Origin: Pomacea canaliculata
Taxonomy: Eukaryota; Mollusca; Gastropoda; Architaenioglossa; Ampullariidae
Assembly: GCF_003073045.1 (NCBI RefSeq)
Contig: NC_037600.1
Span: 14,527,188 to 14,591,187, forward strand
Direction: 5' to 3'
DNA: 64,000 nucleotides
The notes beneath the pieces are model-generated. The model had not been told where the DNA came from. It saw nothing but the letters and a program-made list of their open reading frames with translations, and searched no databases. A program made the position numbers and the translations under genes. Of the stretch, positions 6,031 to 64,000 are shown one piece after another; the first letter of the stretch is position 1; each line of letters begins with the position of its first letter.

Positions 6031-8754
6031 GAAATCAGCCGGTCTGGCGTAGGCGTTAGAGATCGAAGATCCTTTCTGTAGGCACTGTTAAATGGAGTTA
6101 ACGTCTCCGACCTCTTCAAGTCTTGAACCCGCTTTTATTTACTGTTTCCTAGGCGACATCGTGTTTCCGTGGATGAAGTTGATGGTGTAATGGTTGATAT
6201 GACACTTTTATATGTGTGGCTAAAAGCGGTTAATTAGTTCGCTCAGATATACAGTCTACCACAGGACAAGATGAACGCCAAAGAGAAGTATTTCGTGCTC
6301 ATAATCCTCCAAGACTTGTTCAGTGCTTTTCCAGTTCCGTTAAAACTATCTTTGCACACACACAACACACACAAACTATTCACAAGTCGTGTGCCTGTAA
6401 GATGATATAACAAAATTCTTATTCCGATTGTCCTGCTTGAATCAGAATCACACAGAATCAGCGACTGGAGAGGACAGAATTCTCTGGACAGAATATTCTT
6501 TGCTCCATTGACTTTGACAATGCTGTGAGACTTCGACTCTGTCCAGTGGTTGTAGAAGATCTTTCATTGCAACGAGACGGTTTGTCGGATCCTTATTATT
6601 AAGATCATCCTTTCTCTCCATTTTTTAAATTATTTATTTTAGATCTAGTATTTTATTTTTGCATATTTTTTTAAGGTCTTGTGTATAACTAAAGGAACTT
6701 ACACGGCTGTCTTTTGGGTTTAGAAATTTAGACATGTCCTTTTGCAATCTCTACAGAAGATTGTAATCCGAGTTTAGGATAGGGTTAATCAGTAGTAATA
6801 AGCCATAAGGATGGGTAATCAATCAAAAATATAAATAATTGTGCATGAACATGGACCTAAACGTCTTCTGAACACAAAAAATACTGTAAAATGAGTCCAT
6901 GAAAAGTGTGATCCGTCAAAGACAATGGTGTAGGAACCGAGGTGAGTGGAAGGCAAGGGTAACAGCTGCCCCCTTTAAAAAAAAAAAACTACTGTGGAGG
7001 CAAGAATGTGAATGTGGTTCACTGTCAGCATGAAGTTCCCTCTCCCAATAAATGGCTGCTAACCACAAGAACACCTTAGTTCACTGTTTGCTTTAATTGT
7101 TTACTTATAACATACAGGGGTACGTATCCTGCTTCGTCCCGGCTGAAGTGTACTGTTAGCTCGATCTGGTTGGCTGTGGTTTCATTATTAACCTTTACCT
7201 TGAAGTCACTTCATTTGAGTCAAGCTCATGCATGTGAGGCGTAAGTATAACTATACAATGAAACGTACATTTATACAGCTTGATTCCCCTCCCTTACTTG
7301 ACAGGTTGACATCTTATACTTGGCAAGGTAGGTAAGACGTTTCGAATTAAATGAAAAATGAAATCTCAGTGGTATGTATCAGTCTTCAAGCGACTATTCG
7401 ATAGCTCGCTCGCTAAATTTCCCCTGCCAGGCTTTCTTTCAATCTGTCTTTTACTTTCACATAGTTTCCTTTATTATGATACTGTAGAAAACTAGAAATC
7501 TGATTAGCTAGCGTAGCAGACGTATATCGATCGACACTTAATTAATTCCTCATACAATATTTTTCTCCATTTGAAGCCACCATATGTAACGTCTTAAAAG
7601 GGAGAAAATAAGCATATGCGTTTCGAACAACGTACGTGCACTAACTATGCATAGTGAGTGAACTATATATATATAGATGAAAAAAATATATATGATCTGC
7701 CCCTCTAAAACAGTTGCCCACATTAACATCATGATTAAAAATACATCACGGTAAACATTTCTGTCATCTATTATTATAAATAAACGAAAATAAACGTATC
7801 TATGCTCTGTCCTGATGTCCGTGAGTGTTATTCTATCATTCGGGGGAAAACCACGCACCCCATCAGTCATAAGTAAACAAGAACAATGCATGTTCTAAAT
7901 TTAGTAACACGCTCGCTGATCACATGATGACGGATCAGGCACCGGGGTAGCAAGGTCGGTAAGTTCTGATTCTTAATTCCACGGATCAGTGACTATTATC
8001 TCAAACTGGAGATGGCAAACATTTCTCTAATGGTTCTTTATTGTGTGAGCACTGACAACATAACTATATGTAAGCTCTCGATAGATATAACTATGGCGAC
8101 AGGATCAGAATTAAAAATATTAAATTCCCGGAAAGTAAACAGATCGAGGTCTTTTTTTAAAAATGAAACAGAACACTGAAATAGATAAGGACGAGTAAAA
8201 TGAAAAAAGAGAAAAACTGAACACTTAATACGATCATTGTAAAACAATGATATTAAAGTCGACAAGAACAAAATATTTCGTTAATTTTTCAGAAAATTTT
8301 GTTTCCCCTAATCCCGCTCAACAGCTTGCCAAAGACTGTAAACGATAATCTGTACCATGGTATACTCTGATGCCTGACCAAAGGCACTAAATTTCCTAAA
8401 AAATAGAACGCAAACTCTGTGTTTAGCCGATGTGTTGCCTCGTAAATATGTTTGACAAGAATAATATTATGTTGACGAGAAAAGCTCCAGGAGTGGGTAA
8501 GCAGTGTCCTTAATAGTAAGGGGGGTAATCCGAATAATCGTTCTTTGACATAGAGCACCTATGTACAGTATATGTATTTAGGTGTATGCACGCTTTATAT
8601 TTATCTATTTAAACGTAAATCCTAATTTTAAATAATAAACGATTTTTTCGTCATCACTGAAGGAACATTTTTTTTTAAATTAAACTTTATCACTCTTTTG
8701 GCTTGCACTTTCACATTCTATGTGTTCCTATATCATTTGACATTTTTGTTCCAG
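6031..8754. other. Putative promoter-to-exon interval of the nrf-6-like gene
   Basis: AT-rich sequence with no recognisable coding exon. Short open frames on the minus strand (7550-7891, 8038-8271, 8289-8558) show no family resemblance I can defend. If the 5.9 kb cluster is the promoter, most of this is the first intron, ending at the acceptor ttgttccag at 8754. Confidence 0.4.
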
Positions 8755-8817
8755 ATCTCACCGATTATCCTCAAGCTGGTTTGTTTACCTCAGCATAGTT
8801 TTGCGTAACTTTATCTG

Positions 8818-11800
8818 ATGCTGCAGCTTCATGTGTCAAGGAACCTGCCAGCTGCTATGGGTGTTGTGATATTGCTAACAGCATTGCTTTGCGTGCAGAT
8901 ATGCACCGCTCAACAAATGCCATCCTACTTCCAAAAATTTGCCATGGCAAAAGCTTCATCATCCAGCGCAGAAAAATCTTTTGTCTCAGAGCAGTTTCTT
9001 GAAGATTTTCCATCTTATTATCCCCAACACGCTTTCAAGAAGAGCTGTTTAATGGAATTGATGATTTTTTGTCTGGTAACAACACTGCAGGTATAGCAAA
9101 TGTTTCCAAACTTTGCTTCAACCAGACAAGACATATTTTGGTAGGTTTGGTAGGAGGAGAGCCTTGGGCACTTACATGTAAGTTTAAATATAATTTTCAC
9201 TCATCAAACATTTCTTTAATGTAAAAATAATGATTAATATCAAGAAATTTCTTGCATAACTTTTTAAAAACCCTTTTCATCTCAGGACTGTTATGATTGT
9301 TTCCTCGTGTAGGAATAACAGATATCCTGCTGTCCCCCTTTTCCTAGTTGTGGGTGGGGTAGGGTGTGTTTTATGTGTGTTTGAGTGACCTTTTTTTTTA
9401 TTCCATATGCTTGTCTTACTTAATATGGAAGAAGCAGTAGTTCTAGAAAGTCGGTGTTAAACCAGCAAGTTATGACTGAAATAAAAAAAGAAATCTCATT
9501 ATTTTCAGTGCTGGATATCATAGGCAAACCCCCACCTAACTTGAAAGGCTTAAACTTTGTTTGGCCTGGGGCATACAAAGAGTGCTTCAACTTGACTGTA
9601 AATGACAGCAACAGCTTAATCCAGGCAGAATTCAAGGGACAGTACTGTACAGCATCACTGATACTTTCTGAGGTGATTCAATGGGTCGTGTATATAAATG
9701 TATACATCAGTAGTCTAACAATACCATTGTACTTGATATTTATTTTTTAATTTTAAACAGCTGTCATAACTAGTTAACATTTCAACAACATTATTTCAAC
9801 TGAATTTCATTTTGGACAGGTTAGAATTTAAAAATAGATAAGCCCCCTAATACTGAAGTGATCTACAGTATGTGCATAAACAGAAATTTCCCAGAAGCTA
9901 CAATCTGTGGTCACAGCAAATATTTCAGGAATAGATTGATTGCTGAATGGAGTTTATACTTTATTATGTGCTTTTTTGTAGTTTAAAAATGTTCAGAGGT
10001 TGTTTCAGTGCTATTGTGGATCATCTTTCCTCTTGCTGTTTTTATTCGTGATGCCACTCACACGTTGCGTCTCATGATGCTGCAGGCAATACCTTTTGCT
10101 GTTATCAATGAGGGACTCTGTGTACCCAATTCTTGCTCAAGTGAAGATGTTACTCTATTTTTACAAGTTTGTAAGTTGTTGTTTTTTTTCTTTAGAAGAT
10201 TAGTGGAATATTGGAATAATTTTCCCTTTTAAACTATTTTGTTTGGGAAATTATGGTGGTAAAAAGAAAAGAAAGGGAAAAATAAGCTTCTGCAATTAAA
10301 AAATTAACAGCTCTAAATAACTTTATTTTAACGGAATGAAAATAAGCTACTGAAGCATTTTATCTACCTATAAAGTGTATAAATCTGCATGTTCTGCTTA
10401 CAAAGTACACTCTTTTGATAAGGCAGAAACTGGTATTTAAGATCATCCTTATTGTGAAAACCCATGGGAATGTATTAATCTTTTTTAAACTTCATTATGG
10501 ACATATTTTACAAAGTATAAGAAGTTAGTTTATTTATATTAGAAATGGAGGTGGTTCCTACCAGACGTCAAATGGCATTGTGGGGTGACTACAACTTAAA
10601 AAAATCGTCTCTAAATTATCTGTAAATATTTGTGTTATAGTGGCAAGGAGATGGAATAAAGAAAAACAAGTATCTGCAACATGTCAAAAACCAAGCAAGC
10701 CTTTGGACAGATATGCTATTGCAGGAGTGTAAGTAGAATTTGAATAAATACACTGTTGTTGATATTTAAATATATATTGATGCTGGAATGAGTCAACCTA
10801 GTAATCATGTTTAGAGGATGTAATAAAATTATAACAAAGCAGATACTAAATAAGCCTGGCCATTTTTTCCTGTTTACCTTGTGATTGCCTTGATTTCTGT
10901 CATTAATAATCATTAATAAACAGCTTCTTAGCATTTAAGCTGCATTTTACTTTCACTTAAAGTGAGATTAAATACTAAGTTTAGAAAAAAGGGTTGGTTA
11001 AGTAGATAAAATGTGTAAAGTCTGTGTAGGAAAACTAAGACATTCTAGTAAAACCAGTTCTATGGTTTGAAACATTTACTCATGTGATTGCTCCCTCTTT
11101 GTATTAGGGTTGTGTGCAGTGTGTTTGCTGCACTGATGGTGATTGGCACGTTGATAGATATAGTTGCCATTCAAATGCCTAAATGGAGGTCCCAGGAAAT
11201 GGACAGCCTTGGCATCAATTCTGTGTTTGAGAATGTACCTGAAGAAGAGAAGCCTTTGTTACTGGGTTTTAAAACAGGCATAGCTTCACCTGAACCAGGT
11301 GTGTTTTAGGCAGAGATTTTCAGAAGACATAGAAGGGGGTAAAAAGCTTAAAAATCTTTATTTAGCTGCACCATTCAGTATGAAAAATGTATTTTCCTGG
11401 GAGAATTATAAATCATCCTCATCAGAGCACTTTGCAAATATCAAAAGAAATACAGAATGTGTTTTCCATACAAACACTGGCCTAAACATATTTAAGCAAT
11501 ATAAGAATATTGAAAACAATTCTGTTTATAAAATGTGTACTAGCACAGCATCACCAACATCATTATTTTTGATTTGTGAATTAATCGTAAGTTTAATACA
11601 CAAGAGGATAATTATATATATGTATCCAGCAAGACATTTTTTGTGTTGTATTTTTTTCTAGAGTTACAAGAACTCCTCCTTTACTTCTGTTTTAAAGGTT
11701 TTTGTTCATTGTAAACAGGCCTAATTGTCCAGATCCTGGTATCATTTTCTGTGTATACAAATGGCTCTAAGCTGCTGAGTACCACTCAGTCACACAACAA

Positions 11801-14800
11801 CCTTGCCTGCTTGCATGGGATACGTTTTTTCAGCATGACCTGGGTGGTCTTAGGTCATACATTCATCACGCCACTTGGAGCTGCATGTAGGTACATTTGT
11901 GTTTTTTATTTAAAAATAGTTAGTACATTATATTAACAACATTTTATTTCTTCACGTTTTCTTTTATGGGAGTTTTCATCCTGTTACTTTTATTCATTAT
12001 CTTAAAAATAAGTCAAGTGAAAAACCATTTGAGAAATGCCATGACATAGGCAAGATTTACGTTCATTCATGATTGAGTTGCAGCCAAAGCACATTTCTGC
12101 ACCCACTTTTGGGTGCTGATGTTACAACAGATTTTTAAAAAGGCCCTTAACTGTAATCTTGAGCTATCTGATTGTCTTGAGAAAAGGAAAAGAAATTTGT
12201 TCCTGGCTCTATAGTATATACACTGGTCAGTAATTAATTCTTTTCCCAACTTAGAAAAGATTTTCCTTTTTAATCAGCAAGTATTGCCCATATGAGCTGC
12301 AGACTACTTTTTTCTTTTACAGCAAACTTCTATAGCTACTATATGGAAGTACAGGATCGGTGGAGTTTTCTTGCCATCTCTAATGCAGTGTTCTCTGTGG
12401 ATACTTTTTTTGTGCTAAGGTTTTTACATCTTTTTTTTATAGCAGATATCATATTATGTAGACAAATGATGCTAGTTGTAAAAGATTGAAAATGTATAAA
12501 ATTTAGTTCGTTTTCTTCATAATATGTTTTTTTTTATTTTTAAAGCATTATTTTATTTATCCTGACACATTTTAATGTTATCTTTAGTAATAGATTTTGT
12601 AATTAAATTTTTATCAAAGTCCTGATCAGGACTAATTGAATAAATGTAAGCTAAGCTGACATTTGAATTATTTATTGTCTGTTATTTTCAGTGGTCTTCT
12701 TGTCGCCTTCTTATCATTGAAAGAGATGAAGAGATGTGCTGGAAGATTAAACTGGGCCATTTTTTACTTACATCGCTTTTGGAGGTACTATTTATTAATA
12801 CTTTAAATCCAACCTTGACCTTGAATTCTGATCTCAAGGCATGTACGAATTTGAAATATTTTTTTAAAACATAACATGACATCCTAATTACAATGAAATC
12901 TTTACTTTAAAATTTTAAATTGAGGTCTTCTTGCTCCTGTGTTAAAGGATGTAGCTCTTTTCAACTGTGATTCAACTACCTAAATGACTGGATTTTGTCC
13001 CTTTTCACCTAGCTAAATGAGTGGATTTTGTCCCTTTTGGCTTAGTTTATCAAGCTTCTAACCACCACAATTTGCCCTCGATGGCGATGGTTCATTTTTA
13101 TCTGTGTGTATGTGTGCACCCTGGTTTTTCTTTCTTTTAATGATAGGCTCACACCACCTTACATGCTGATCCTCCTTCTGTATGTGTGTCTGGGACCATA
13201 CTGGGGAAGTGGCCCAATGTGGCCTGACAAGCAACCAGATCGAGACAACTGCAAGATGTCATGGTGGACCAACTTGCTGTACATCAACAATTTTGTAGAC
13301 CTGGATAACAGTGTAATTCTTTATCATTTTTGGGCAGCACAAGGAGGCTGTCATGTTTTGTTGTCAAGTGATGTCATCAAATCCATCCATTTCCCAGGTC
13401 CACGAAATTTTTAAACAGCAATGATTCAGAGCATCAGTATCTATATTTTAAGCCTAAACTGCCCATTTCACTTGCCTTTTCCTTTAACCTTTGATTCTTC
13501 ACTATATGCAACAGCTTTATGGACCTTGAGGATTATAATGATTTGGGCAACAGTTAGCAAAGGTGTGGAGGAAATAATCAATGTGATTGAAGAACTGTCA
13601 GCCTAATTAGTTTATCAATGTGTAAACATGTATCATTATGGAGATGAAAGGTCATTTCATTGTCAACTTTTGTCTTGTTTTCAGTGCATGGGCTTCACTT
13701 GGTACCTTGCTAATGACATGCAATTTTACATACTGAGCCCTCTCATTTTTGTTCCATTCTATTAGTAAGTTTTGTGAGTTTTAATTGTATAGTTCTTGAG
13801 CAAAGAAACAAAACATACTGAATGTTGTATGTGCATGAATTTGCATGGCAAGTTTATTTGAAAAAAATTATAGCTTTTATATAAGGACATGTATGAACAA
13901 GTATAAAGTCTCAAATGTTATTAAAAATAAGTGTGTGGTGTGTGTGTGCACATGAGAGTGTACCACATTTTCCTGTAACGTTCCTGAGCAGAAATATCTC
14001 CAAATTCCAACACCAAACTATTTTTATTGGTGTTTATTAATTTAATTTTTTCAGCTTATGAATCAAAACGTGACATTTTCAAAGCACAAACTAGACACTA
14101 CAGATTTAAGAAAATGGCGGAGCTTGAATTAAAAAAAAAAAATAGCATTAGTAGCCTGCCAATATTTATTTAACATTGCTCCTTAATAATGACAACAACA
14201 TCATTACCAGACTTCTGAATCTGGCTGTTCTTCTTGTGTACTGTTTCAGCTCGGTGAAATATGGTATGATCGCATATGGAATTTTTCTTACGGCAACAGT
14301 CGTCACCCCTGCCTGCCTTACTGTGGCAGACCATCTACCAGCCAGCTTGTTCACTGCTGGTACTCAGGGTGTAGTGTATGTGTCATACATATTATTAACC
14401 CCACCCACCATCCACCATCCACCTATTTCACTTTCGCCAAAAACTTAAGGGATGAAAGTTTTGTCTTAGTGTGATAAGAGGAACTTTGTGCAGCACTGAG
14501 TGGACTGTAAAGTTCTTTTCCAACTTGCTTATCTGATTAGAGATAATAAAAATACCTGTGTTTGTGGTGTTTCTCTGCATGCACATTTGTGCACATTGTA
14601 GTCAAAGCTTGAGTTGATGTATTTGTGCTTTATACAAAGTAAATGAGGTTGTACTCAGCAAACAATTTCAGAAGATATATATTTATTATTTTTGAAACAT
14701 TTTTCAGGGAGAAATACCAGCATGAGCTGTACATCAAACCATACACTCGCATGGGTCCATATATAGTTGGCATGGTAACAGGATACCTCTTGTACCACTA

Positions 14801-17800
14801 TAATTGCAGAATCCAAATTAATAAGGTATTTTAATTTTTATTCAACATTATATGTATTAGTATGTTAATTTAGTTGGTAATGATTGATTTTTGACAAGCA
14901 TGTTTCTTGGGAATTGTTTGGTATGAAGTATTATGCAGCATTCACACGGCATGCATTATATGTCTATAATGAAACGTTGATTTTCTTTAGTTGTACAGCA
15001 ACAGTTTTTCAGTATTTATCTCCATCTGAGGTTATATATGGGAAATATTTATGGCATTGGTACACATTGGTAATGTACTCACCATGAAGACTTAAAACAG
15101 TTCATTACTGAAGACTGAAATGGGTTGAGATCTTGCCAAAAAACCCTGAGGAATTTATATGCATCTGCTATCTGCTTATTGTGCTACCCACAGTATTGTC
15201 TTCAAGTGTTCTGATTTTTCTCCCACATACCGAAACTTGTCTTAGCATCTAACCTATCTGCTGTCCTTGGTGCAAAATGGTAACCAGCCAAGAGCAGTTT
15301 CATTTACAAGATAGTGCTAAATATTTGCATCACATCATTGTCTGGTACATATCTCTTGTCTTTAGCATAAAAATATTGAGATTTATATAATTCTGAGATT
15401 GATATGCATTGGGAATAAAGTACCTTGATTGCATTTATTGACTGGGAAAGTGGATAGCCTAGTGGTTAGAGTGCTGGTATCTGAACTGAGAGTGCACTGG
15501 TTCGATACCCATGTAGCGCAGTTCACTTTGCCCCAGTCGACCCAGCTGGTGGCAATAGGTACCTGACTCCAAGAGGGTTTGGGAAAGTAAGGCTGCGAGA
15601 AAAGGAGATGGACACCACCATCACATAAAGCTGGTCCCCAAGAAAAGTAGTCTCCTCCCTAGCGACCTGAGAAAGATCACAGGGACCTTTGCCTTTTTCA
15701 CATTGATTGACGTTCTTGATTGTTTGTAATCTATGGCGTCATGATTAGAGCTAACATTTCAGTAAGTATATGGTCTGCAATCAGAAATTCAGTTACAATT
15801 AGAACAAGTTAACAGGCAGTGGTAATATGTATTAAGCTGTGTCAACCATAGAGTGCCTGAAATTAGTAATAGCTAGGTTTAAAGATAGATAAAATATTAA
15901 ATAGTGGAAGCCATGTTTATGTCATTACACTCATTATTTACTGTTGTGCAGATTCTGAATCTGTTTGGGTGGATAGTTGCAACTGCTGTGGGTTTGGCCG
16001 TGGTGTATGGACTTTATGATGACTTTGAAGGTCATATTTGAGCGTGTCATTGTCTGCTTTGTACAATGCTCTCAGCCGCACAGCCTGGGGAGCCTGTGTA
16101 GCATGGGTCATTTTTTCCTGTGTTACTGGCAATGGAGGTAAGCAGAAGCATTTTTTTCATGTCTCAGTCACCTCCATTTTTTTTTTTTTAACTCCAAAAC
16201 CAACTCTTCTATATATAAAGACTTACTGGCATGGCAATCAGCTATGACATCTCACCAAATATCACTGATGCGGTCAGAATTAAAATTTGATACCCCAGGT
16301 TCAATTAAAAAAAAAATACAGGAAAACTGATTATTTGAAAAGTTGCAAAATAATAACTATAAAATTTATGCTTTTTTATACCCGCTGTATCTTGATAATT
16401 GGCTTTTATCCCCTGACTCAGAAGTAAATTCTCCCAGTGTGGGACTTGACCATGCAAACTAGGACATCTTTTGTATGATGCTTAAGAGAATATGTGCATA
16501 ATTTAAATAATTGAATAGTAGGGGTGGGTGGAAACATCCTCTTAGTGTTCATTGTCGTGTAGTTCTGCATTCTGCCTTTGATTTGTGCAGGATTTGTGAA
16601 CACTATTTTGTCATGGAAAGCACTAGTGCCCCTAAGTCGTCTGACTTACTGTGTCTACTTGGTACACATCATAATAATGGAAGCATACTTCTACAGCAGA
16701 GACACCCCATTCTATGTCTCAGATGAGAATGTGGTGAGTAATATCACTCTAAGCTAAATCATGAGTTTTTATTTCTAATGGACTCTGGTGTCAGATTGTA
16801 TGATTCCTTATCGTGAGATACCGTTTTAATTTTTACCTATGCTTTGTAGTTCATGAGTTCTAGCTGTAACTAAACACATTTTCTTCCATTTTTCTAAGTG
16901 TTTCTTCATACATTTCTTTTAAATCAAAACATTTTGGTTAATGGAGGACTACATATACAATCATAGTCCCATAAGATTATAACGGTAAAAATCCTGTCGT
17001 TGGTAACATTCTTGTCATTACATCATTGTTCAAGGTATCACTCATGTGTTTGGCGGTGATGGTGGTATAGACATAACCTACTGTGCTGCAGGTCTTATAA
17101 AAGAATACACAATATCTCACATTATCATAAATGACAGGTAAAAGATGAAGTCACCTAGCAGTGTATTTTTCAGAACATATCGCCATCATTAAATGTCCTT
17201 GCTTATAACCCTAAAATCATAATTACGGATCGAAACATGAAAACTTAATCAACCCAATAAGCACTTTTTAGAAAACATGGAACAGAGGGATGCCTTACCC
17301 AGCAGAGCGTGACACAACGGAAGGGGTCTCACAAACATATTAATGGTCTACTTTCTCACAGAATACCAACAGTGATCCTTCGAAATCCCTTCATCACTTT
17401 CACCAATATTTGCCATGCCCCAGGGTGCTCTGGTGATGCAACAGTGTCCTGGGTTCAGCTCTCATCTTGGGAAAGCTGTTCTTTCTCTGCATGTGGCATC
17501 TGTTTACAGGGCTGGCTGCTTTGCTATGATATAGCCATGGTTGCTGGTTCTGTGTAAAACACCTATCCCACCCACCATGCCTCCATCCCATAATAGTAAC
17601 TTTCTAGCAACTCTTAGCAGCCCTGAATAAGTAGGAAAGGGGTGTACAGGTGCTCATCCATGAGCATCTGTAAGGCAGCCTGACAGGGAGCTCATTTCAT
17701 AGAAATGATTTTGGGCTTGGCATTAGGATAATTCATTTTGTCACTGCTGCTGCTTAGTTGGCTGCTTGTTTGTTTTCTGTCAACAGTGGTGGTGATAGTA

Positions 17801-17965
17801 ATATATATTGATAGTTGCTGCTGGTTGCTTGTGTTGCAGGTGATAGCCTTCCTTGGCCTTCTTTTATTCTCCTTCATGGTTGCTGCAGTTATTTCCATTG
17901 CATTCGAGGCGCCCATGATGGCATTGGAGAAGGTGCTTCTGAAAACTCTGAAGAGGAGAGAATGA
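8818..17965 (+). CDS. nrf-6-like: nrf-6-like multipass membrane acyltransferase (16 exons, two apparent single-base frame breaks)
   Basis: Exons: 8818-9177, 9509-9672, 10086-10170, 10641-10728, 11108-11298, 11366-11586, 11733-11886, 12323-12419, 12692-12784, 13147-13312, 13685-13764, 14250-14375, 14708-14825, 15952-16137, 16591-16733, 17840-17965. Phases agree throughout and give about 799 residues. The order is: hydrophobic signal peptide (VVILLTALLC), an NRF domain with Cys motifs (GLCVPNSCSSED, ATCQKPSKPLD), a first membrane helix (VFAALMVIGTLI), FSVYTNGSKLLST, then an acyltransferase-3 domain with GIRFFSMTWVVLGHTF (its His is the likely catalytic one), LNWAIFYLHRFWRLTP, LGPYWGSGPMWP, LSRTAWGACVAWVIF and LSRLTYCVYLVH. 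The C. elegans relatives act in lipid or yolk uptake and drug sensitivity; the substrate here is unknown. The frame changes once within about 9002-9045, and once at 16036-16044, where the expected frame meets TGA at 16039-16041. Each fits one missing base. Exon 6 is the least certain: it implies a 67-bp intron. Confidence 0.9.
12975..13043 (+). repeat. Short tandem duplication in an nrf-6-like intron
   Basis: Two adjacent units of about 35 bp share taaatgactggattttgtccc and taaatgagtggattttgtccc (one difference). They lie in the intron before the exon at 13147. Confidence 0.7.
15445..15700 (+). repeat. tRNA-derived SINE, family B, full-looking copy in an intron
   Basis: Box A-like tagcctagtggttagagtgc (15455-15474) and box B-like ggttcgatacc (15499-15509) are correctly spaced for a tRNA-type RNA polymerase III promoter. 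A non-tRNA body of about 180 bp follows (cccagtcgacccagctgg onward). A truncated second copy lies at about 39835-40039. A functional tRNA is unlikely because the body continues and no cloverleaf closes. Confidence 0.75.
16915..17208 (+). mobile_element. Tigger/MER2-like non-autonomous DNA transposon relic (Tc1/mariner, pogo-Tigger type)
   Basis: The left end (attttggttaatggaggact, then agtcccataagattataacgg), an internal stretch around 17041-17110 (acctactgtgctgcaggtc, then ttataaaag) and the right end (cagaacatatcgccatcatt) match, in order and from memory, the ends and interior of mammalian Tigger/MER2 elements. Most mismatches are C-to-T or G-to-A changes of the kind expected from CpG decay. 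The element is about 295 bp, has inverted-repeat-like termini, has no open frame, and lies in the last intron of the nrf-6-like gene. Family assignment rests on remembered consensus and needs a search. Confidence 0.65.
17412..17580 (+). repeat. tRNA-derived SINE, family A, copy 2
   Basis: Sequence gctgttctttctctgcatg, then tggcatctgtttacagggct, then tagccatggttgctggttct is shared with the minus-strand copies at about 45335-45545 and 58505-58737. The segment gggttcagctctcatc near 17451-17466 is box-B-like. It sits in the last intron of the nrf-6-like gene. Confidence 0.75.
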
Positions 17966-18862
17966 ACTTTGCTATTTCTACACTCTATTTTTTTTTTTTT
18001 GCCACTGATTTGATGCAACACTGACTCGGGCATAGGAAAGGGTAAGGAAGACGATCTGAATATCTCAAGTGAGCTGTGACTGTATTAAAAATTTTTATGT
18101 GTCAAGATTAAGGATAGATCATTTTTAAATGCAGACAAAACTGTTTAAAACTAACAAAGACTTTTTGATTGGTATGTATGAATCACACGATTTCAACTTG
18201 TTCATTGGTCGTCAGTACACTGTCCAGTGCTTATAGTGTGTGTGTGTGTGTGCACACATGCACATATTTATGCATAAAGTTGTTTTCTTGCTCTTGTTGC
18301 ATTTATTCAACAGAATTAAATAGAATTTAAGTCTGTACTCATTAATTTTTTTGTGCAAATACAGTCATAATTACAAATATTCTGTACAGTTGAAAATAAT
18401 AAGTTGGAATGCTTGTGGAGACATTAGATTCAGATTGAATTAACATGTAACTTTCTTGCATAACCTTATAAAATGCTTTCACATAAAGTTGATAGTTGTA
18501 ATTATTTTACAGCTGATATAGTTTTGTACATGATGTTTAACAGATTTGTGATATCTTTTCAGAGCTCAAAGTGTTGTTTACCTATTTAGTAGCTGAGTTT
18601 CCTTAGGATTTTTGGTGGAAATCTTTTACTAGGATATTCTATTTGACACTATATCATCCTAATTTGAAACACAATCTCTAAATGACATTAGATGAATCTC
18701 AATTGTATGTGCCATCTTTATTAAAGAAAAATATTTACACCTTTTGAATGTCACAGTTTATATTTTCCAGTGTTGTATTGCATAACACATGTAGCATTAA
18801 GGTTCTTTTAGATATACATGTATTTGTAATTTTATGACATCACAGTGAGCTCACCCTCACTG

Positions 18863-18868
18863 AATAAA
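18863..18868 (+). terminator. Polyadenylation signal of the nrf-6-like gene
   Basis: AATAAA lies about 900 bp after the stop codon at 17963-17965. The intervening sequence is AT-rich and behaves like a 3'UTR. A TG run at about 18237-18252 lies within it. Confidence 0.6.
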
Positions 18869-18889
18869 GACGTTTTTAAGGAACCCGTT

Positions 18890-20340
18890 GTTTTTATTTG
18901 GTGTTGCCAATTTTGCAGTCATTTGACTAGGGGCAGAAGATGCCAGTTTGTGCAGCTTCTTGTCTTCTCTTATAACAGATTGCTGTCAGCATGCCATTAG
19001 TTACAAGTTTTCATTACAATAAACCAAAAGATGAAATATAAAAAATACATATAAATTAAAAACCAAATGCTAAATGAAGCAGAACGTAAAAATCAGACCA
19101 TACAAAGGGTGTGACTTTAATCAGGTCTGTGTCAAGTACAGTATTGTGCCAGGGTGTAAATAAAATGCTAGCTTAAGCCAGAGACTTGAAGAAATGTAAG
19201 ACTGACAAATTATCAGTATAACATGAAATGTATAACAGTGTCCATAGCCTGCATGCAGAGAGACGGAAAAATATCAAAAACTCACACTAGGCGAATTGAT
19301 ATTTCCTTGGTTGCAATATTGGCCGAAGATTGAAAGTGAAAAGTGGTCCAGTGCTGGCCCTAGATTAGTGTATCAAAAACTCATGCTTGGTGACTACACA
19401 ACAAATTTTGTTTACCTATTGATAATGGAATGAACGAGTACATAATGGCGTGTACTTAGCAAATTTACTGTGTAAAATATTTGATATCAAGCTGTTTGAA
19501 TTCGCTCACAATAAAACTTGAAAACCAGCCTTTCCTTTGAAGGCAGCCGCCCCTGATACTCTTTAACGACTCTATGCCAGCCGTGTTATTTGTTATCTTT
19601 GTACTTATATATAGTGTTAAAATACTACGGGCAGCCTATTTCTAATGGTGTTGTACTTGATAAATTACATTTCAGTCAAATTAACCTAGGATGAATTTAA
19701 AAAATGAAAACAAGTACATTTCACATTTTGGCAGACGATCGACTGGTTCAAAGAAGTCCGTAGGTCGCTCGATTGTCTTACATGTACAGTCGTAATTACT
19801 TGAGATGCCAGGCAGTAACTGCGCGAATACAGAGTGCCCTGCGTGCAGAGATCTATCTTTAATTTTGGAAATCCTGGCGACTCTGCATGTCACATAACTA
19901 ACGCTGAAAGCAAGGAAGCTCATTACTTCCACTTACCATAATGGGCATCCAGCTATAAACAGATCATTTTAATTGTTTCACTTTTTTTTTTTTTTTGTAT
20001 TTCAAATAAATCTGCGCAATATCTCACATTATCTTAAATGACAGGGTACAGCCCCAAAATAAATAAGTTAGCCTAACGATGGCTGAATACACACTATACG
20101 ATGTAGGGTTTCCTTTTCAATAACTCTTCCAGAGTTTATCTTGATTTCGAAGCAGACGAAAATCCCGACATCATGGGTTACTCATTTTTTGAAACAGGTA
20201 ACATGCATTGAGATGACTTCAGGCATCCTAGATTTGTTTCCTCATCCTAGCTCCCGATATGTCAATAACAATTTCTGAAGCAAACAATTTGGAAAACACT
20301 TTTAAATTTCGTTAAGATGATGACAAAATGTACATAAAAA
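18890..20340. other. Intergenic stretch between the nrf-6-like gene and the coiled-coil gene
   Basis: No gene seen. It contains a T-run near 19983-19996 and a second Tigger-like fragment at about 20010-20117. The minus-strand open frame at 19681-19932 has no recognised feature. Confidence 0.5.
20010..20117 (+). mobile_element. Second Tigger-like fragment
   Basis: The string aatatctcacattatc, followed by (t/a)taaatgacagg, recurs from the relic at 17110-17138 with about 25 of 27 positions identical. Downstream, gttagcctaacgatggc and cacactatacgatgta resemble other parts of the remembered Tigger/MER2 interior. Only part of the element is present, in the same orientation as the first. Confidence 0.45.
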
Positions 20341-27671: not shown

Positions 27672-27741
27672 GTTATTATATTATATTATATTATATTATA
27701 TTATATTATATTATATTATATTATATTATATTATATTATAT
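27672..27741 (+). repeat. (TATTA)n microsatellite
   Basis: About 14 near-perfect pentamer units. Confidence 0.95.
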
Positions 27742-27875
27742 AATCTACTTTTATACGAGCATAATAATGCTTTGTGAATCTGAACTACGAGCTTTAGATC
27801 TGTACCTCCATCTTGCACATCCTAATCTGTGAAAAATGATGAGCAGTTGAAACCCTTAACACTGCACACTATTTT

Positions 27876-43650: not shown

Positions 43651-46600
43651 ATGAAACTTTCAGTCGCACTGCTTTGTCTTGCTTTGGGTAAGAGTGTACT
43701 TTGTATGACTACAGTGTGTGACATTTATTTTCGTTTGAAAACGCTGTGGGAGGGTTCTTTCTTTTTTATTTTATTTTTTTTTTGGTTTTGTTGTTGTTGT
43801 TTTTTGCTGGTTTTTTTTGTTGTTGTTGTTGTTTTTTTTTTGTTTTTGTTTTTTTGGTTTTTCGTTTGTTTTTTTTGTGGAGGTGTTTGTTTTTGTCTTA
43901 CATTCTTTCGTATAGGAGCACATAATTATGTCAGAAACTTAATTGCTCTAAGGGTTCGGGTGATTAATTTGGAATTTTTTTTATACCTCTTGGGGACATT
44001 TCTAGCTTAGGCAGATATTTTTTTAAAAAATGTAAGGATGTTCAGGTAATTATGGGTGTGATTGGTTTTACACCGTTAAAATTCTCATTTATAATCTTGC
44101 GTGTGTCATAGCCTATTTGTTTGCTTGCTTGATTGCTTGCTTGATTGCTTGCTTGATTGCTTATTTATTTGTTCGTTCGTTTGTTCGTTCGTTTGTTCGT
44201 TCGTTTGTTCGTTCGTTTGTTCGTTGGTGGGTTGGTTCGTTCCTTCTTTTGTTAGTTTATTTGTCTGAGTGTGCGCGCAGGGATGCACCTGTGTGATCCA
44301 AATCCGATAACAGATGAACTGTTTCTTGTATTTTAGGTATATATTCATAAATGAATATAATACAGGCATACATACAATATATGTCACAGGCATACATACA
44401 AACATCTACATATGAATGTGTGAAATCTAGGAGGAATATAGACAAACGTATTGTAGCTAACAAACTCTCCCAGTCCTAACCCCTGGGCATACAACGAAAG
44501 CCTCTCTAATTCTATTTTGTCTCAAATGAGCTGACTGAAATATGTGTTTCTTGTCTCTGTTAGGCAAGCGAACAATTCTTCTTTGTTTAGCTATGCATTT
44601 GTCGACTCGGGGAATGGGGAGGTAGATGGATGGTTAGCGCCGAAACGTCAACTGAGCTGTCTGTAAACGAGGATGAGTGCAGTCGACAGCTTGGTAGCAC
44701 GTGACCCCACAGGTGTTCGCTTGAAAACGTCCCGCAGTGTGTGTTGATTGTGGTAATGAATTGCCATCCATTGATGATGATGATGATGATGATGCACATG
44801 ATGATGATGATGATGCAATACAAAGTCATTAATCCACATGGACATTTGAGGGAAAACACCTGTTCATTATTGAAAGCAAAGCAATAATTTGTTTCTGCTC
44901 TCTCTATTCAGGTGTTTGTGCTCACGCATTCACCGTGCCAGCTGATGAGGTCACCACCACAGCAGGTCTCCCGCCCATTGAGACTGTGCCGACTGAAACG
45001 ATCCCTCCAGCAGTTGATGACTCCACGACCACGCCTCCTGCACCTGTAGTTGATGACTCCCCGACCACGCCCCCTGCACCTGTAGTTGATGACTCCACGA
45101 CCACGCCCCCTGCACCTGTAGTTGATGACAACACGACCACGCCCCCTGCAACTGTAGTTGATGACTTCACGACCACGTCCCCTGCAACTGTAGTTGATGA
45201 CACTACCACGCCCCCTGCAACTGTAGCTGAGGGCACCACGACAACGACAATCCCACCTCGTGAGTTGTGTTGCTTCGACAAACAGAAGGGAATACAGAAA
45301 AAATGTATAGACACAATGAAAGACAGAAAACGAAAAAAAAAAAAAAGACAAATACAGCACAAGGGAGGTGGGAATGATGTTTTTCGCCGAGCCAGCAACT
45401 AAGGCTATATGACAGCAAGGCAGCCAGCCTATAAACAAATGCCACATTCAGAGAAAGAATAGCGTGTCCATAACGAGAGTTGAACCCAGCACAACCAACC
45501 TGTGTGTTGTGTGTGTGTGTCTTGGTGGCCGGTGGGGCGGGTAAAGGAGCAGACGACAGAGAGCAAGACACCTGTGCCACCTGTCTAGCTGACAGGGGAG
45601 GGAGGAGCAGGGGGTTAGCTAACCTCCCACCTCTTATCCTCATTCTCTTTGTTGCAGCTCCTTACCAATGCTACGACTGCAACAGCGGCACCCACACCGA
45701 GGGCGGCTGGCTCAACCCCGACTGTCCCGTTAACGGCGCCATCACCCCTACTAGTGCGACATCTCCTTGTAACGGGCCCTGCGTCTCTTTTGGATCATTA
45801 TGGCCGGCTGGAAGTAAGTGAAGCGCTCAAAGAATGCGATTGGTCCCCCACTTCTCCCCTTTCTCAGAAATCTAGTGCTTGGACCCATCACGGTCTATAA
45901 GTACAGCGGAATAACCAGATGAAAACAGGTGTGACGACGTAGATAACCAAGATGACACACCTGTCCATATTCATAGTAGCAAAAGTGATACAACTGTAGA
46001 TTTAGCCACTATGGGCCCTGGTTTAATTTCTAATTCCATTTGGGCCTGAATATTTCTTTTGACCATCAGCTACACTACCACTGACTTTAAAACTCCAGTA
46101 CTCGAGAAGTAGCTGCTGATGATGGACGTTTCTAGAGAGTCAAACACGAAATTTATACAAAGATTATTTTTAAACATTTTGACTTTATATAGTCAACGTC
46201 AAAGAAAACCTACATGATCCTGGTTTATAGCTTCATACTTCATTATTCGTCATCATCGACATCGTCATTAACGTCCTCCGTTATTTGTCTGTTGTCCTCA
46301 TTATAACTATTCTCACATGAAGTCCATCGCCTCTTTTCTTGTCTTACCCGGTCAGTTTCTTGTCAACTTTTTTTCTCTTTGGTACCCTGGGTAGTTTCCT
46401 GCCAAACTTTCTGTTTTCTCTTCAGTACTTTGTCGATTTCCTGTAAAGGATTTGGTTTATAATCAATTTCCAGAAAATGTTTGCTTATCCTGTCAATATT
46501 TTCAAATCAGTATTAGGGTTAAATTCTTGCTAAAGTTTTCCTTACCATGACAATGTATGTTTTATTTTTAAACCCTAGCGATCAATCGTGGGTGTGAACG

Positions 46601-58504: not shown

Positions 58505-58737
58505 GATTTGTTTTTTTTTTTACGGGGTGGGGGTGCTGGCCCCACGCCCAACCCTCCTCCTTTTTCAGCCGGGCTTGGGACCGTCCTTGGCGGAGGGCGG
58601 CCAGCCCTGTAAACAGATGCCACGTGCAGAGAAAGAACAGCATGCCTGAGACGAGAAATAACTCAGGGCAGCCAACCTTCACTGTATTGGTGACAGGCGC
58701 TAACAGCGCTAGCCGTTGTGCCACCGGACCGCCTGGT
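58505..58737 (-). repeat. tRNA-derived SINE, family A, copy 4 (reverse, most complete head)
   Basis: The minus strand begins ggcggtccggtggcacaac and ggctagcgctgttagcgcc (tRNA-like head with box A), then ggttggctgccctgagtt, and the shared body catgctgttctttctctgc, then tggcatctgtttacagggct. The + strand T-run at 58509-58520 lies at its far end. It abuts the LINE tail at 58403-58490. Confidence 0.75.
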
Positions 58738-58849: not shown

Positions 58850-59125
58850 GCGGGGGGAACTCAAGGAAAAGCGTTTCGTTTCCAAAACTATACAGAGGTG
58901 TACACACCCCGTAGATGATGTTTTTACCGAGTGTATGTGTAGTTATAAAGTGATGGCAAAGTTGCCGTGAGGTAAAACAAACAACAACAACAACAACAAC
59001 AACAACAAACATCGGGTAGTGTCAGCGAGATCTGGACATCGCGTTGTAACTACGGAAACGACTTGCTCTTGGTTTTTATAATTACGGCCCCTGATTACTA
59101 AGAGTGTTGGGTGACTAGAACGCTC
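58850..59125 (+). repeat. Dispersed repeat D (MITE-like), copy 1
   Basis: It begins ggggaactcaaggaaaagcg and ttccaaaactatacagagg, later accccgtagatgatg, and ends tttataattacggcccctg with agtgttgggtgactag. The opening segment recurs directly and inverted in the copy at 62335. A (CAA)n run occupies 58979-59007. Confidence 0.55.
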
Positions 59126-59611: not shown

Positions 59612-62600
59612 ATGGGGCTTTACCTTTGGACATTGCTGTTCACAATCATCCACGTAATCCTGCTTGGGAATTTCACCTTCTGTATACCAGGTATGGAATG
59701 TACCCACTTTATTGATAGAAATAGACTAAGTAGGGAATTCCATTATCCAGATGTATTCCTGTTGCGTAATGGACCAGATCAGATGAATTCTCGGGTATCG
59801 TTTCAGCTTTAAGTCGCAATCAGTGTTGTGTATATTAAACGTCTTACATCTCTCTTGTTCTCTTTTTCTTTTTTGTTCCTTTTTTCACTCTGTGTGTTTT
59901 CTCTCTAATTTATTTATATATTTTTGACATTTTACACTGAAATGGTGAATACGTCGATAAAGTTCGGATTTAAATTGCTGTAAATGTTAACCTTCCTTGG
60001 CTATATGGCGACCTTTTTAAATCAGCCCTTTTAATTTTAAATCTCGGCAATCTTCTTAACGCATTTTATTGTCTTTTATTGTTAACGTTTTCAAATAATG
60101 TTGACTTTACAGGTAAACTGAAATCTTATCCGAGTTTCACCGATGTTAGAGTTGTTGCGCTTTAAGAATGTTGGACGAGCTTTACGAGAAGACATTCTAA
60201 CTTTATAGATATAAAAATACACCAAAATAATTTTGCGATGTCATATTAAAATTAGACCTTTGTTTGCTGTTTGTCTTTGTTTATTTATTGATTTCATAGA
60301 AAATCCCAACAGAAAGAGTCAAGTTGAATACCGAATCAAATGAGATTTGTTGATACTTATTGTCAGAGGACAAGGAAACATTTTTGGCCATATGACAAAT
60401 CAATATATATTTGTTGGATCATGTCAGAAAACAATTATATATGAAAATTGAATTAGTTTCTGCTGTCCGTGACAACTGTATATTTTAGTCTAGCTGGGTC
60501 TTTGTTACTCCTGGGAGGAGCATAGGGCCGCAACACCACCTCGCCGGCGGACCCGTTTTTGGACAGACAGCCCCTTTAGTCCTTTCCTGGCTCTCTACTG
60601 TTCTTTTCCAAGTCTGCTTTGGTCTCCCAGCTCTCCTCTTCCCCTGAGGATTCCAGTCAAGTGCCTGCCTGGCAATGCAAAATGTGAAAGGAATTTTTGT
60701 AAATATGTCGATGAGATGTGGCTCACAATTGTAAATACTTAACAGAGAGAAAGAGAGACGGACTGATGAAAAGTTATTCAAGTGCTATTTCCCTTTAGTA
60801 ATATTCTATGTAATTATTTTAGGATATCTTTTATACTCTCTTTTTCAGTTCGATAGTCTAAAGAGTCGATTTCAAATATTTTATGGTCCTTTCATCTTCC
60901 CTGTGAGCTCCCTACAATAATGTTGACATACAGAGTCAAGGGAGAAAACCTGGCTCATGATTGTTACCTTCACAGTGTTCATAAGCGTCTGTTGTCATCT
61001 TATATAACTGTATGACTTTATAACTGCCATAAAAGCCCTAAACATAACAGACTCCCGCCAAATATTTATGGTTTTAATCTTTTAAGTAAGTGTTCCCATA
61101 AATGTTTTACATGAACAATCTACGGCCATTTTGGATCGTATCAGATTTCTACTGATTACAATATCCGCCACGATATGACCTTTCTCGCTGACCCGGCGAT
61201 AAACAACAATCAGTCCGTCAGTCAATCATTCCATCAATGTTGTGTGTTCTCTAATCATGACATCTAAGCTTCCGCGTAAATAAAACATCTCGACTGATTT
61301 CGTGCCTATCGGAGGTGCTTGACAACACTCGTCATAAAGAACAAAAAGTCGAGCACGACAACCAGGACGTCCCGCAATAAGATCAAACTTAAAACTGAAA
61401 AAAGATCTCGGATTCCTATTGGCCATATACTTACTTCGTTTATTGCAATAATATGTCCGGTACACAAGTATATATCCTGTTTGTGAAGATTATGTACTTT
61501 TTTCTGAAAACACACACCCACTTATGCGTCTGTACTTCTTCAGCGAAACAAAATATTATTTCAGACAAGCCATTAGTGTGGGTTTGTTTTTGGTTTGTTT
61601 TTTCTTTTTTTTTTCTTTTGTTGTTGTTGTTGTTGTTGCAGTTTTGTTTTTGTTTTTTTGTTTTGTTGTTGTTGTTGTTTTTTTTTTTTGGGGGGGAATT
61701 CTTTGTTTTATTTTATTGTCTCGTCGGACATACAAAAATGAATCACATGAAAGGAACGTTCGCGATCAGATACGCGCAGGTAATTTGTAATCACTTGACA
61801 GAACTGATCTGATGAACAAAAAAAAATAATAATAATAAATTCGAGTAATTTTTGCTGATAACGATTCCTCGAACTCACTTGAAAGTCTCAACTCAATCCC
61901 GCCATGTCACCTCAAGTCATGCACGTTTATCTCAATCACTCTATGTTTGTTTTTCTTAATTCCTGTATTCGACCTTTGACCTTTCCTCCCAGAGGCGGAG
62001 CACATGTGGGGCAAGTGCATCACGAGCAGGAAGGACAAAATTCACGTGACCTGTCCTCTCGGCTACGTCATCTACCGCCCGGTCTTCTACGTCGCTGCGC
62101 ACACGCGTCACGACAAAGAATCCTGCGGCTTCTCGGCCACCGACTGTCACGGACAAGCACGTGACACGAGCGTTCAGGTGATGCTGGTTGCAGGGTTTCT
62201 GTAACAATTGTAACCGGGAACGTTTATTTAAAAAAAAAATCAAAAACGAGAAGGAAGTGGAATCGATCTCGCTTTCATTGTTAAAAGAAACGCTCTTTCA
62301 TCTTTAAAAGACTTCCCCAGTGTGGACTTAGCGTTAGTAGAGTGATGTCAAGGATAAACGTCTTGTTTCCGAAATTATAGAGTGGTGTCTAGACCCCGCA
62401 GATGTTATTTTTCCCCTAAAGCCGTTATTATAAGACGGAGGGAAATGTACCCTGAGGTCAAGAAACATGAAAAAATGTCCACGATTTCTTGAAACTGCTT
62501 TATGATTTTGGAAACAAGACGCTTTTCCTTGAGTTCCCCATTTTCGCTCTGAGAAAAGACCATACACTCACTTTACAACTATGGCCCCTGGTGATTTGAA

Positions 62601-63124: not shown

Positions 63125-64000
63125 GTTGTCTTTGATGAAACAGATAAACAAGTGTCTTTGGGAAAACACCTGCACATTGAGATGGCATGAGCACATGCCT
63201 ATTGTGAAATCATCCAACTCCAGCTGTGTAGGAGTCACCCCGAACTACGTCGCCTTCAACAATCCACTTTGCCTTCCCTCAGGTGAGAGAATCAACTCCA
63301 TGTTTACAGACTTCGTTAGGATTTTATTTAGGAAGAATAGCAAAGCCATTCCAAAAAACAAAAAACAAAAACGTGTGCATGTGCGAGATACATGTCTACA
63401 AACATCGCCTTGTACAGAAATGTCGAACTCGTGACGTCACGTTTGTACACAGATACCTATATGCAATTACCATACTTTTCCACAGACCGAGGCCTTCATT
63501 AACCTTTATAAAAGGTTCATGTACACTCATGTCTCTCCACAATACTGACCTATTTCTTACTGGAAGGTTTGTTGACAAGTATTTTGAGAACGAAACTGGG
63601 GTATCTACGCAGACTTGGATGGAAGAAGTATCTTCCACTGCGCTTTACCCAATTATTGAGGAAAATAAATTGCACCCCAAGTAAGAGTACTTTAAGATGT
63701 GTTCACCGATTTACTTCTTCCCCTCACCCAGAATCCTATTTTTGCTTGCAATGACCTGGGGATCAGTTTTCTGGGAATGAGGAAGTCGAGAAAATAGCTG
63801 ATGCAGCACTTTTGTAAACTGCCTTGAATGTCGTGCCTACCCCGGCCCTCACTCGGGCAGATGAACTGCAGGACGGTGGTGAACTGTCAGGTCTTTTTTC
63901 GAGAAATTTCAGTCGAAACTGAGTCGAATTGTCGACAGAGAGGAAGAGTTTTCTCTACATCCTCCTCACCTTCCACAACTCCTCCTCACGTCCGGCTACC
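59612..64000 (+). CDS. Secreted SUEL-lectin-like protein, 5' part (gene continues past window)
   Basis: Exons: 59612-59690, 61993-62177, 63144-63282, with phases 1, 0 and 1 in agreement. The signal peptide is MGLYLWTLLFTIIHVILLG. The domain spans exons 2-3: GKCITSRKDKIHVTCPLGYV, then TRHDKESCGFSATDC, then INKCLWENTCTLRW, then NSSCVGVTPNYVAF and NPLC. The cysteine order fits SUEL/rhamnose-binding lectin domains (C, TCPxGxxI, C, C, VxxKC, C, C, C). However, the usual ANYGR and DPCxGTxKYL sugar-contact motifs are not intact, so carbohydrate binding is doubtful. A possible next exon starts after the acceptor ttcag at 63912: it stays in phase and open to the window edge with a Ser/Thr/Pro-rich sequence (VFSTSSSPSTTPPH). 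A LINE tail and repeat D lie in the introns. CCAAT-type gattggctg at 59528-59536 may be a promoter element. Confidence 0.75.
60485..60700 (-). mobile_element. LINE 3'-end fragment in an intron
   Basis: The minus strand reads IARQALDWNPQGKRRAGRPK, then QTWKRTVESQERTKG, then an ending like RWCCGPMLLPGV. The motif WxPxGKRxxGRPKxTWxRTVE is diagnostic of the C-terminal part of many LINE ORF2 proteins. It lies in intron 1 of the SUEL-like gene, opposite to the gene. Confidence 0.8.
61595..61695 (+). repeat. T-rich and (GTT)n simple repeat
   Basis: Poly-T and gttgtt runs with a short G run at 61691-61697. The overlapping Phe/Val-rich frames are artefacts. Confidence 0.9.
62335..62600. repeat. Dispersed repeat D (MITE-like), copy 2, with inverted ends
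   Basis: The left part gtcaaggataaacgtcttgt, then ttccgaaattatagag, recurs as the reverse complement at the right (plus-strand ttttggaaacaagacgcttt, then tccttgagttcccc, 62506-62540). The right flank acaactatggcccctggtga matches the end of copy 1 (ataattacggcccctgatta). It sits in intron 2 of the SUEL-like gene. Confidence 0.6.
63086..63122 (+). repeat. (GAT)n microsatellite
   Basis: About eleven units, 22 bp before the acceptor of the exon at 63144. Confidence 0.95.

What the first reader, a model, noticed from the sequence alone, without database searches (positions are those of the whole stretch)
16915..17208. Tigger/MER2-like transposon relic with non-coding sequence resembling mammalian elements
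Both ends and an internal block match, in order, what I remember of human Tigger/MER2 non-coding sequence (for example agtcccataagattataa and acctactgtgctgcaggtc), with mainly CpG-decay differences. Non-coding parts of a DNA transposon should not stay alignable between a mollusc-like genome and mammals by descent, so a shared, horizontally moving Tigger lineage is one explanation. A second fragment at 20010-20117 argues for a genuine resident family.
Basis: partly seen in the sequence, partly recalled or inferred. Interest (0 to 1): 0.7.

Follow-up and report, generated by a model that had tools for sequence, protein, structure and literature searches.

The report
Decayed Tigger jumping-gene relic in intron
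A roughly 260-base dead fragment of a Tigger-type jumping gene seems to sit in an intron of an invertebrate gene, and its ends look, against sequence recalled from memory, so much like the mammalian version that the jumping gene probably moved between animal lineages sideways rather than by descent.

Summary
The recalled right end follows in order at 17141-17192 (48; best of 500 local shuffles 35; not significant over 64 kb). Outside CpG sites 155 of 181 bases agree; of 26 consensus CpGs 17 read TG/CA, 1 is intact. The left block has no long reading frame. It lies in an intron of an NRF-type acyltransferase gene where CpG depletion is confined to the gene region, an invertebrate-like mosaic; mammalian contamination is unlikely. 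Recalled MER2 and Tigger1 do not match. The second fragment (19997-20045) repeats element sequence but does not itself match recalled Tigger.

Best reading: a dead, internally deleted Tigger copy of a horizontally spreading lineage. Mammal-arthropod Tigger transfer is published (PMC9219625), and Tigger is annotated in molluscs. Weak points: the consensus is recalled, no Dfam/Repbase was available, no TIRs are detectable, and the host genome could not be searched.

The parts
16929..17111 (+). Left (5' non-coding) part of a Tigger-type DNA transposon; starts about 20 bases inside the recalled terminus
   Evidence: Local alignment to recalled mammalian Tigger left end: score 150; 60 shuffles over 64 kb max 44; 500 local shuffles per strand max 41 and 45; 140 matches, 41 mismatches, 12 gap columns. 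A shorter recalled piece shuffled 40 times against the masked window reached 54
17112..17140 (+). Internal stretch that the recalled mammalian consensus does not match; stands where the interior is missing
   Evidence: Lies between the two aligned blocks; 17110-17138 recurs at 20017-20045 with 28 of 29 identities
17141..17192 (+). Right (3') end part of the same Tigger-type element, stopping 14 bases short of the recalled terminus
   Evidence: Score 48 versus maximum 35 of 500 shuffles within 16891-17240; over the whole 64 kb not significant on its own (48 versus maximum 51 of 60) though it is the best place there
19997..20045 (+). Second repeat fragment sharing 49 bases with the element's interior; family unproven
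   Evidence: Score 55 versus maximum 37 of 500 and maximum 52 of 40 over the masked 64 kb; no significant match to recalled Tigger ends (best strand: 28 of 500 shuffles as good)
16734..17839 (+). Intron (probably the last) of the host NRF-type acyltransferase gene, in which the relic lies
   Evidence: Read from sequence: GTGAGT at 16734, TTGCAG ending at 17839. Upstream exon frame matches Pfam Acyl_transf_3 positions 265-294 of 326, E = 0.00063, below Pfam's own cut-off; the downstream exon frame 17840-17962 has no Pfam match and ends at a TGA, 17963-17965. NRF N-terminal domain at 9424-9747, E = 6e-08

Best explanation
16929-17192 is a dead, internally deleted copy of a Tigger (pogo-type) DNA transposon. 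While alive it carried no transposase and would have been moved in trans, by cut-and-paste at a TA, by a Tigger transposase binding its ends (inferred from the family). It landed in an intron of an NRF-type gene, and its CpGs then decayed to TpG/CpA because the gene body is methylated (inferred from CpG depletion). Its parent was nearly the same, in non-coding sequence, as mammalian Tigger, most simply because one Tigger lineage spread horizontally among animals and reached both the host's lineage and mammals. Shown: position, collinearity, significance against shuffles, CpG bias, lack of a long frame in the left block, gene-like context. Inferred: mobility in trans, methylation, horizontal spread. 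Recalled: the mammalian sequence itself.
For: Left block score 150 versus shuffle maxima 44 over 64 kb and 41 locally; right block collinear; identity spread over the left block, 16 to 25 of 30 columns in each of six full bins. Non-CpG identity 125/145 left and 30/36 right. CpG transitions enriched, 15/36 versus 7/48, p = 0.0065. Longest frame in the matched left block 36 codons in the recalled sequence and 44 in the window. CpG o/e 0.24-0.35 in the three 4-kb bins 8001-20000 versus 0.58-0.90 in the other 13. Published: Tigger in 8 mollusc species and mammal-arthropod transfers (PMC9219625); 4,548 TcMar-Tigger copies in the scallop Pecten maximus (PMC7191990).
Against: The mammalian sequence was recalled after reading the window, not fetched. 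Terminal CAGT, TIRs and a TA duplication are not recognisable: left versus reverse-complemented right end scored 14, reached by 487 of 500 shuffles. The right block alone is not significant over 64 kb. The element's own CpG o/e, 0.47, is higher than the intron's 0.26, which fits a later insertion but not complete decay. PMC9219625 found no mollusc-mammal transfer; mammal-arthropod was its only cross-phylum case, and much of that runs through one mongoose assembly, which may be contaminated (my inference). No further copies in the host could be sought.
Confidence: 0.7

Rival explanations
1. Tigger relic, but inherited vertically: the non-coding ends stayed similar in both lineages because transposase binding or a promoter constrained them while the element stayed active.
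For: Tigger is spread through most animal groups (PMC9219625), so long residence is possible; the outer parts of a DNA transposon must stay recognisable to its transposase.
Against: The similarity runs about 180 bases inward, not only at the tips, with non-CpG K2P 0.156-0.197, far below the saturation expected over more than 500 million years on two branches (established knowledge).
Confidence: 0.12
2. Mammalian DNA contaminating, or chimerically joined into, the assembly.
For: A match to a mammalian-type repeat in an otherwise invertebrate-like window. The flanks were not compared with any mammalian genome.
Against: It sits between an exon with an acyltransferase match and a gene's final frame, shares a 29-base block with 20017-20045 in the same window, and shows CpG decay like the surrounding gene.
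Confidence: 0.04
3. A conserved domain shared between unrelated elements, as the V domain is shared by SINEs and the mammalian MITE MER6 (PMC6887750), gives the resemblance without a common Tigger parent.
For: Such sharing between SINEs and a mammalian DNA transposon is published, and a SINE-like repeat lies next to the relic at about 17445-17519.
Against: Both a left and a right end are present in order and orientation, which one shared internal domain would not give; the SINE-like repeat lies outside the aligned blocks.
Confidence: 0.07
4. Biased recall: the mammalian consensus written from memory was shaped by the window, and there is no real match.
For: Every Tigger letter here was recalled after the window was read. 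One shared word and six recalled mammal-form words were found in none of 5.39 million papers, and no sequence collection gave a related copy.
Confidence: 0.07

Closest known systems
Mammalian Tigger of the recalled type (subfamily name, Tigger2/3/4 group, from memory)
   Same: Order, orientation and sequence of the left 183 window bases and of 52 bases near the right end; internally deleted copies are usual in mammals (recalled)
   Different: Host does not look like a vertebrate; the 29 bases between the blocks are not matched by the recalled consensus; outermost 20 and 14 bases not alignable
Tigger elements of molluscs and other invertebrates (PMC9219625)
   Same: Mollusca listed with 8 species; cluster B holds 2 mollusc species together with 33 mammals
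   Different: Those are defined by transposase; this relic has none, and their letters were not available for comparison
MER2
   Same: Also a mammalian Tigger-related non-autonomous element (recalled)
   Different: Recalled MER2 does not match: best score 33 at an unrelated place, shuffle mean 33.6, max 41
MER6/MER6A MITEs with V domain (PMC6887750)
   Same: Short non-autonomous Tc1/Mariner-type DNA element in mammals with parts resembling elements of distant animals
   Different: Sharing there came from a captured SINE domain plus turtle-like Mariner ends; here both ends match one recalled element

Membership tests
Tigger (pogo superfamily), non-autonomous relic | Sequence similarity to a known Tigger family over most of its length | tested here: inconclusive
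Tigger (pogo superfamily), non-autonomous relic | Both ends present, in order and orientation | tested here: met
   Left 16929-17111 and right 17141-17192 on the + strand, against recalled ends; right block significant locally, not over 64 kb
Tigger (pogo superfamily), non-autonomous relic | Terminal inverted repeats | tested here: inconclusive
   Result was negative: left versus reverse-complemented right end scored 14, reached by 487 of 500 shuffles; but the outer 20 and 14 bases that hold the inverted repeat in the recalled ends do not align, so this copy cannot show it
Tigger (pogo superfamily), non-autonomous relic | TA target-site duplication | tested here: inconclusive
   Termini cannot be placed: end-to-end alignments need large gaps
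Tigger (pogo superfamily), non-autonomous relic | Transposase with CENP-B-type HTH and DDD domain in an autonomous partner | not testable with these tools
MER2 | Similarity to the MER2 consensus | tested here: not met
   Recalled MER2: best score 33 in 64 kb at 27713-27747, 60 shuffles mean 33.6, max 41
Horizontal transfer | Element divergence well below that expected by descent | tested here: inconclusive
   Non-CpG K2P 0.156/0.197 against the recalled consensus; no host-gene distance or tree could be computed

The most novel reading that the evidence does not exclude
A single Tigger lineage crossed between the mollusc-like host's ancestors and mammals (directly, or through shared parasites or a third host) recently enough that even its non-coding ends are still about 85% identical outside CpG sites; this would be a mollusc-mammal Tigger transfer, a pairing that the published survey did not detect, visible in non-coding sequence.
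Probability: 0.5. Interest if true: 0.6.

Novelty: new member of a known kind. Interest (0 to 1): 0.4.

Why it matters
Mammals carry many Tigger fossils whose source is unknown. An invertebrate copy with nearly the same non-coding ends would give an outside reference for dating and tracing that invasion. The cross-phylum Tigger transfers in PMC9219625 link mammals only with arthropods, so a mollusc link would widen the set of partners and could be checked at once with public genomes.

Tried and rejected
Searches for relatives found nothing: the 25-mer of the shared block, two Tigger left-end patterns, a right-end pattern and a mid-left pattern in viral contigs (0 hits each); a SINE pattern (0); phages and plasmids by blastn (no match); a 20-mer in genome contigs (0). 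The 17-mer GTCCCATAAGATTATAA gave 9 loci in genome contigs and 1 in viral contigs; all 10 look like chance, scoring 34-42 against the element where the word alone gives 34. Rfam: nothing at gathering score in the window, two weak hits at E 1.5 and 2.3 in 16850-17260. ARAGORN found no tRNA. Window-wide scan for further copies, best three per strand: only 19997-20045 exceeds shuffles. Paper searches for sequence words gave 0 papers; 'MER2, Tigger, mollusc' gave 0. Pfam: of 10 frames of the host gene region 2 matched NRF (one below cut-off), 1 had a weak Pheophorbide a oxygenase hit (E 0.016, below cut-off) and 7 had none; the upstream exon matched Acyl_transf_3 below cut-off and the last exon matched nothing; NCBIfam gave nothing for 3 frames. 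Rejected: MER2 and Tigger1 as the match; a coding explanation for the left block; contamination as the likely cause.

Full report
What is there. The sequence at 16915-17208 was read directly. I therefore typed, from memory, longer pieces of mammalian Tigger (left and right non-coding ends), of Tigger1 and of MER2, and aligned them to the whole 64 kb against dinucleotide shuffles. The recalled Tigger left end aligned at 16929-17111 with score 150; 60 shuffles gave mean 36.5 and maximum 44. (A shorter recalled piece, shuffled 40 times against the window with the element masked, reached 54.) The recalled right end's best place in 64 kb was 17141-17192 (score 48), not significant alone over 64 kb (maximum of 60 shuffles 51) but significant within 16891-17240 (maximum of 500 shuffles 35), and just downstream in the right order and orientation. 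Tigger1 (43 versus maximum 49) and MER2 (33 versus mean 33.6, maximum 41) did not match. The subfamily name of the matching Tigger (Tigger2/3/4 group) is from memory.

Quality of the match. The left block has 140 matches, 41 mismatches (30 transitions) and 12 gap columns; the right block 38 matches and 14 mismatches (12 transitions). Of 26 CpG sites in the recalled pieces, the window shows TG or CA at 17, CG at 1 and other states at 8. Outside CpG sites identity is 125 of 145 (left) and 30 of 36 (right); K2P 0.156 and 0.197. In the left block C-to-T or G-to-A changes hit 15 of 36 CpG bases and 7 of 48 other C/G bases (Fisher p = 0.0065), while 8 of 97 A/T bases changed the other way. This is what a methylation-decayed descendant of a sequence very like the recalled consensus should show. 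The match runs through the left block (16 to 25 identical of 30 columns in six full bins), which holds no long open frame (longest 36 codons in the recalled sequence, 44 in the window; the right block was not tested for frames).

What was not found. Left and right ends of the relic do not form a detectable inverted repeat (487 of 500 shuffles as good), the outer 20 and 14 bases do not align, and no TA duplication can be placed. The interior is missing: 29 bases (17112-17140) that the recalled consensus does not match lie between the blocks. Nearly the same 29 bases (17110-17138) recur at 20017-20045 (28 of 29); the similarity extends to 49 bases at 19997-20045, and among the best three places per strand no other exceeds shuffles. 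That fragment does not significantly match the recalled Tigger (best strand: 28 of 500 shuffles as good), so it shows a resident repeat rather than a second proven Tigger copy.

Setting. The relic lies in what reads as an intron from 16734 (GTGAGT) to 17839 (TTGCAG). The upstream exon translates in frame to ...LSWKALVPLSRLTYCVYLVHIIIMEAYFYSRDTPFYVSDENV and matches positions 265-294 of 326 of Pfam Acyl_transf_3 with E = 0.00063, below Pfam's cut-off; the downstream frame 17840-17962 ends in a stop and has no Pfam match. Upstream, 9424-9747 matches Pfam NRF (nose resistant-to-fluoxetine N-terminal domain, E = 6e-08) and 9987-10229 more weakly (E = 0.0035, below cut-off); the other 8 of 10 frames scanned gave no NRF match. 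An NRF domain followed by an acyltransferase domain is the known layout of NRF-6-type proteins (established knowledge); that these pieces form one gene is inferred. CpG observed/expected is 0.35, 0.24 and 0.35 in the three 4-kb bins from 8001 to 20000, and 0.58-0.90 in the other 13; it is 0.26 in the intron and 0.47 in 16909-17208. Such patchy depletion fits invertebrate gene-body methylation, described in oyster (PMC4378273, PMC3840415: only titles and abstract starts seen), and does not fit a vertebrate genome (established knowledge). So the host is most likely an invertebrate; 'mollusc-like' was not proved. Contamination is unlikely at such a place, though the flanks could not be compared with mammalian genomes.

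Relatives. No database of eukaryotic genomes or repeats was available. Patterns from the element found nothing in IMG/VR, and blastn nothing in the phage or plasmid collections; 10 of 10 hits of a 17-mer in prokaryote and viral contigs look like chance. The host genome could not be searched, so copy number and transposase remain unknown.

Literature. PMC9219625 (abstract, passages and section 3.3 seen) reports Tigger in 180 invertebrate and 145 vertebrate species, 8 mollusc species among them, two in a cluster with 33 mammals, and 13 horizontal transfer events; mammal-arthropod was the only cross-phylum pair it detected, and many of its events run through one mongoose, Helogale parvula, whose assembly might be contaminated (my inference). 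PMC7325037 (passages) states that 'Tigger' is polyphyletic and that Tigger1 and Tigger2 are distant, in line with Tigger1 not matching here. PMC7191990 (one passage) lists 4,548 TcMar-Tigger copies in Pecten maximus; PMC8967140 (one passage) names Tigger among cephalopod repeats. PMC6887750 (parts 1 and 2 of 5) shows another route to distant-animal sequence in a mammalian MITE, a captured SINE domain, which I weighed as a rival. PMC10294476 (passages) has no occurrence of Tigger or pogo.

Judgement. Horizontal spread is the most likely cause of the similarity: a neutral non-coding stretch parted since the bilaterian ancestor would be saturated, whereas here non-CpG distance is 0.16-0.20, much of which could be decay of this one copy (inference). 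The kind of event is known. I saw no report of the mollusc-mammal pairing in the section read of PMC9219625 or in the listings (0 papers; 7 of 8 listed, 2 opened; 10 of 80 listed; 10 of 14 listed); this is not an exhaustive search.

Noticed in passing
17445-17519 (+) and 58597-58670 (-): Two copies of a SINE-like repeat, about 75 bases alignable (60-base block 88% matched), the first downstream of the Tigger relic and followed by GTAAAACACC at 17554; resembles molluscan V-SINE/RUDI-type elements from memory, not tested.
   Followed up: partly
8001-20000 versus rest of window: CpG o/e is 0.24-0.35 over the NRF-type gene region and 0.58-0.90 in the other 13 bins: a mosaic gene-body methylation footprint.
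   Followed up: yes
20017-20045 versus 17110-17138: 28 of 29 identical bases while neighbouring sequence is much less alike; just upstream the fragment outside the gene keeps a CpG where the intronic copy reads CA (alignment).
   Followed up: partly
45012-45246: 36-base tandem repeat, 6.6 copies, inside an open frame 44833-45399 that gives a T/P-rich repeat (VVDDSTTTPPAP) segment.
   Followed up: no
1796-1829 and 63426-63459; 58854-58895 and 62498-62539: Inverted pairs of 34 and 42 bases, 88% complementary, the first with a TGACGTCA core; possibly dispersed repeats.
   Followed up: no
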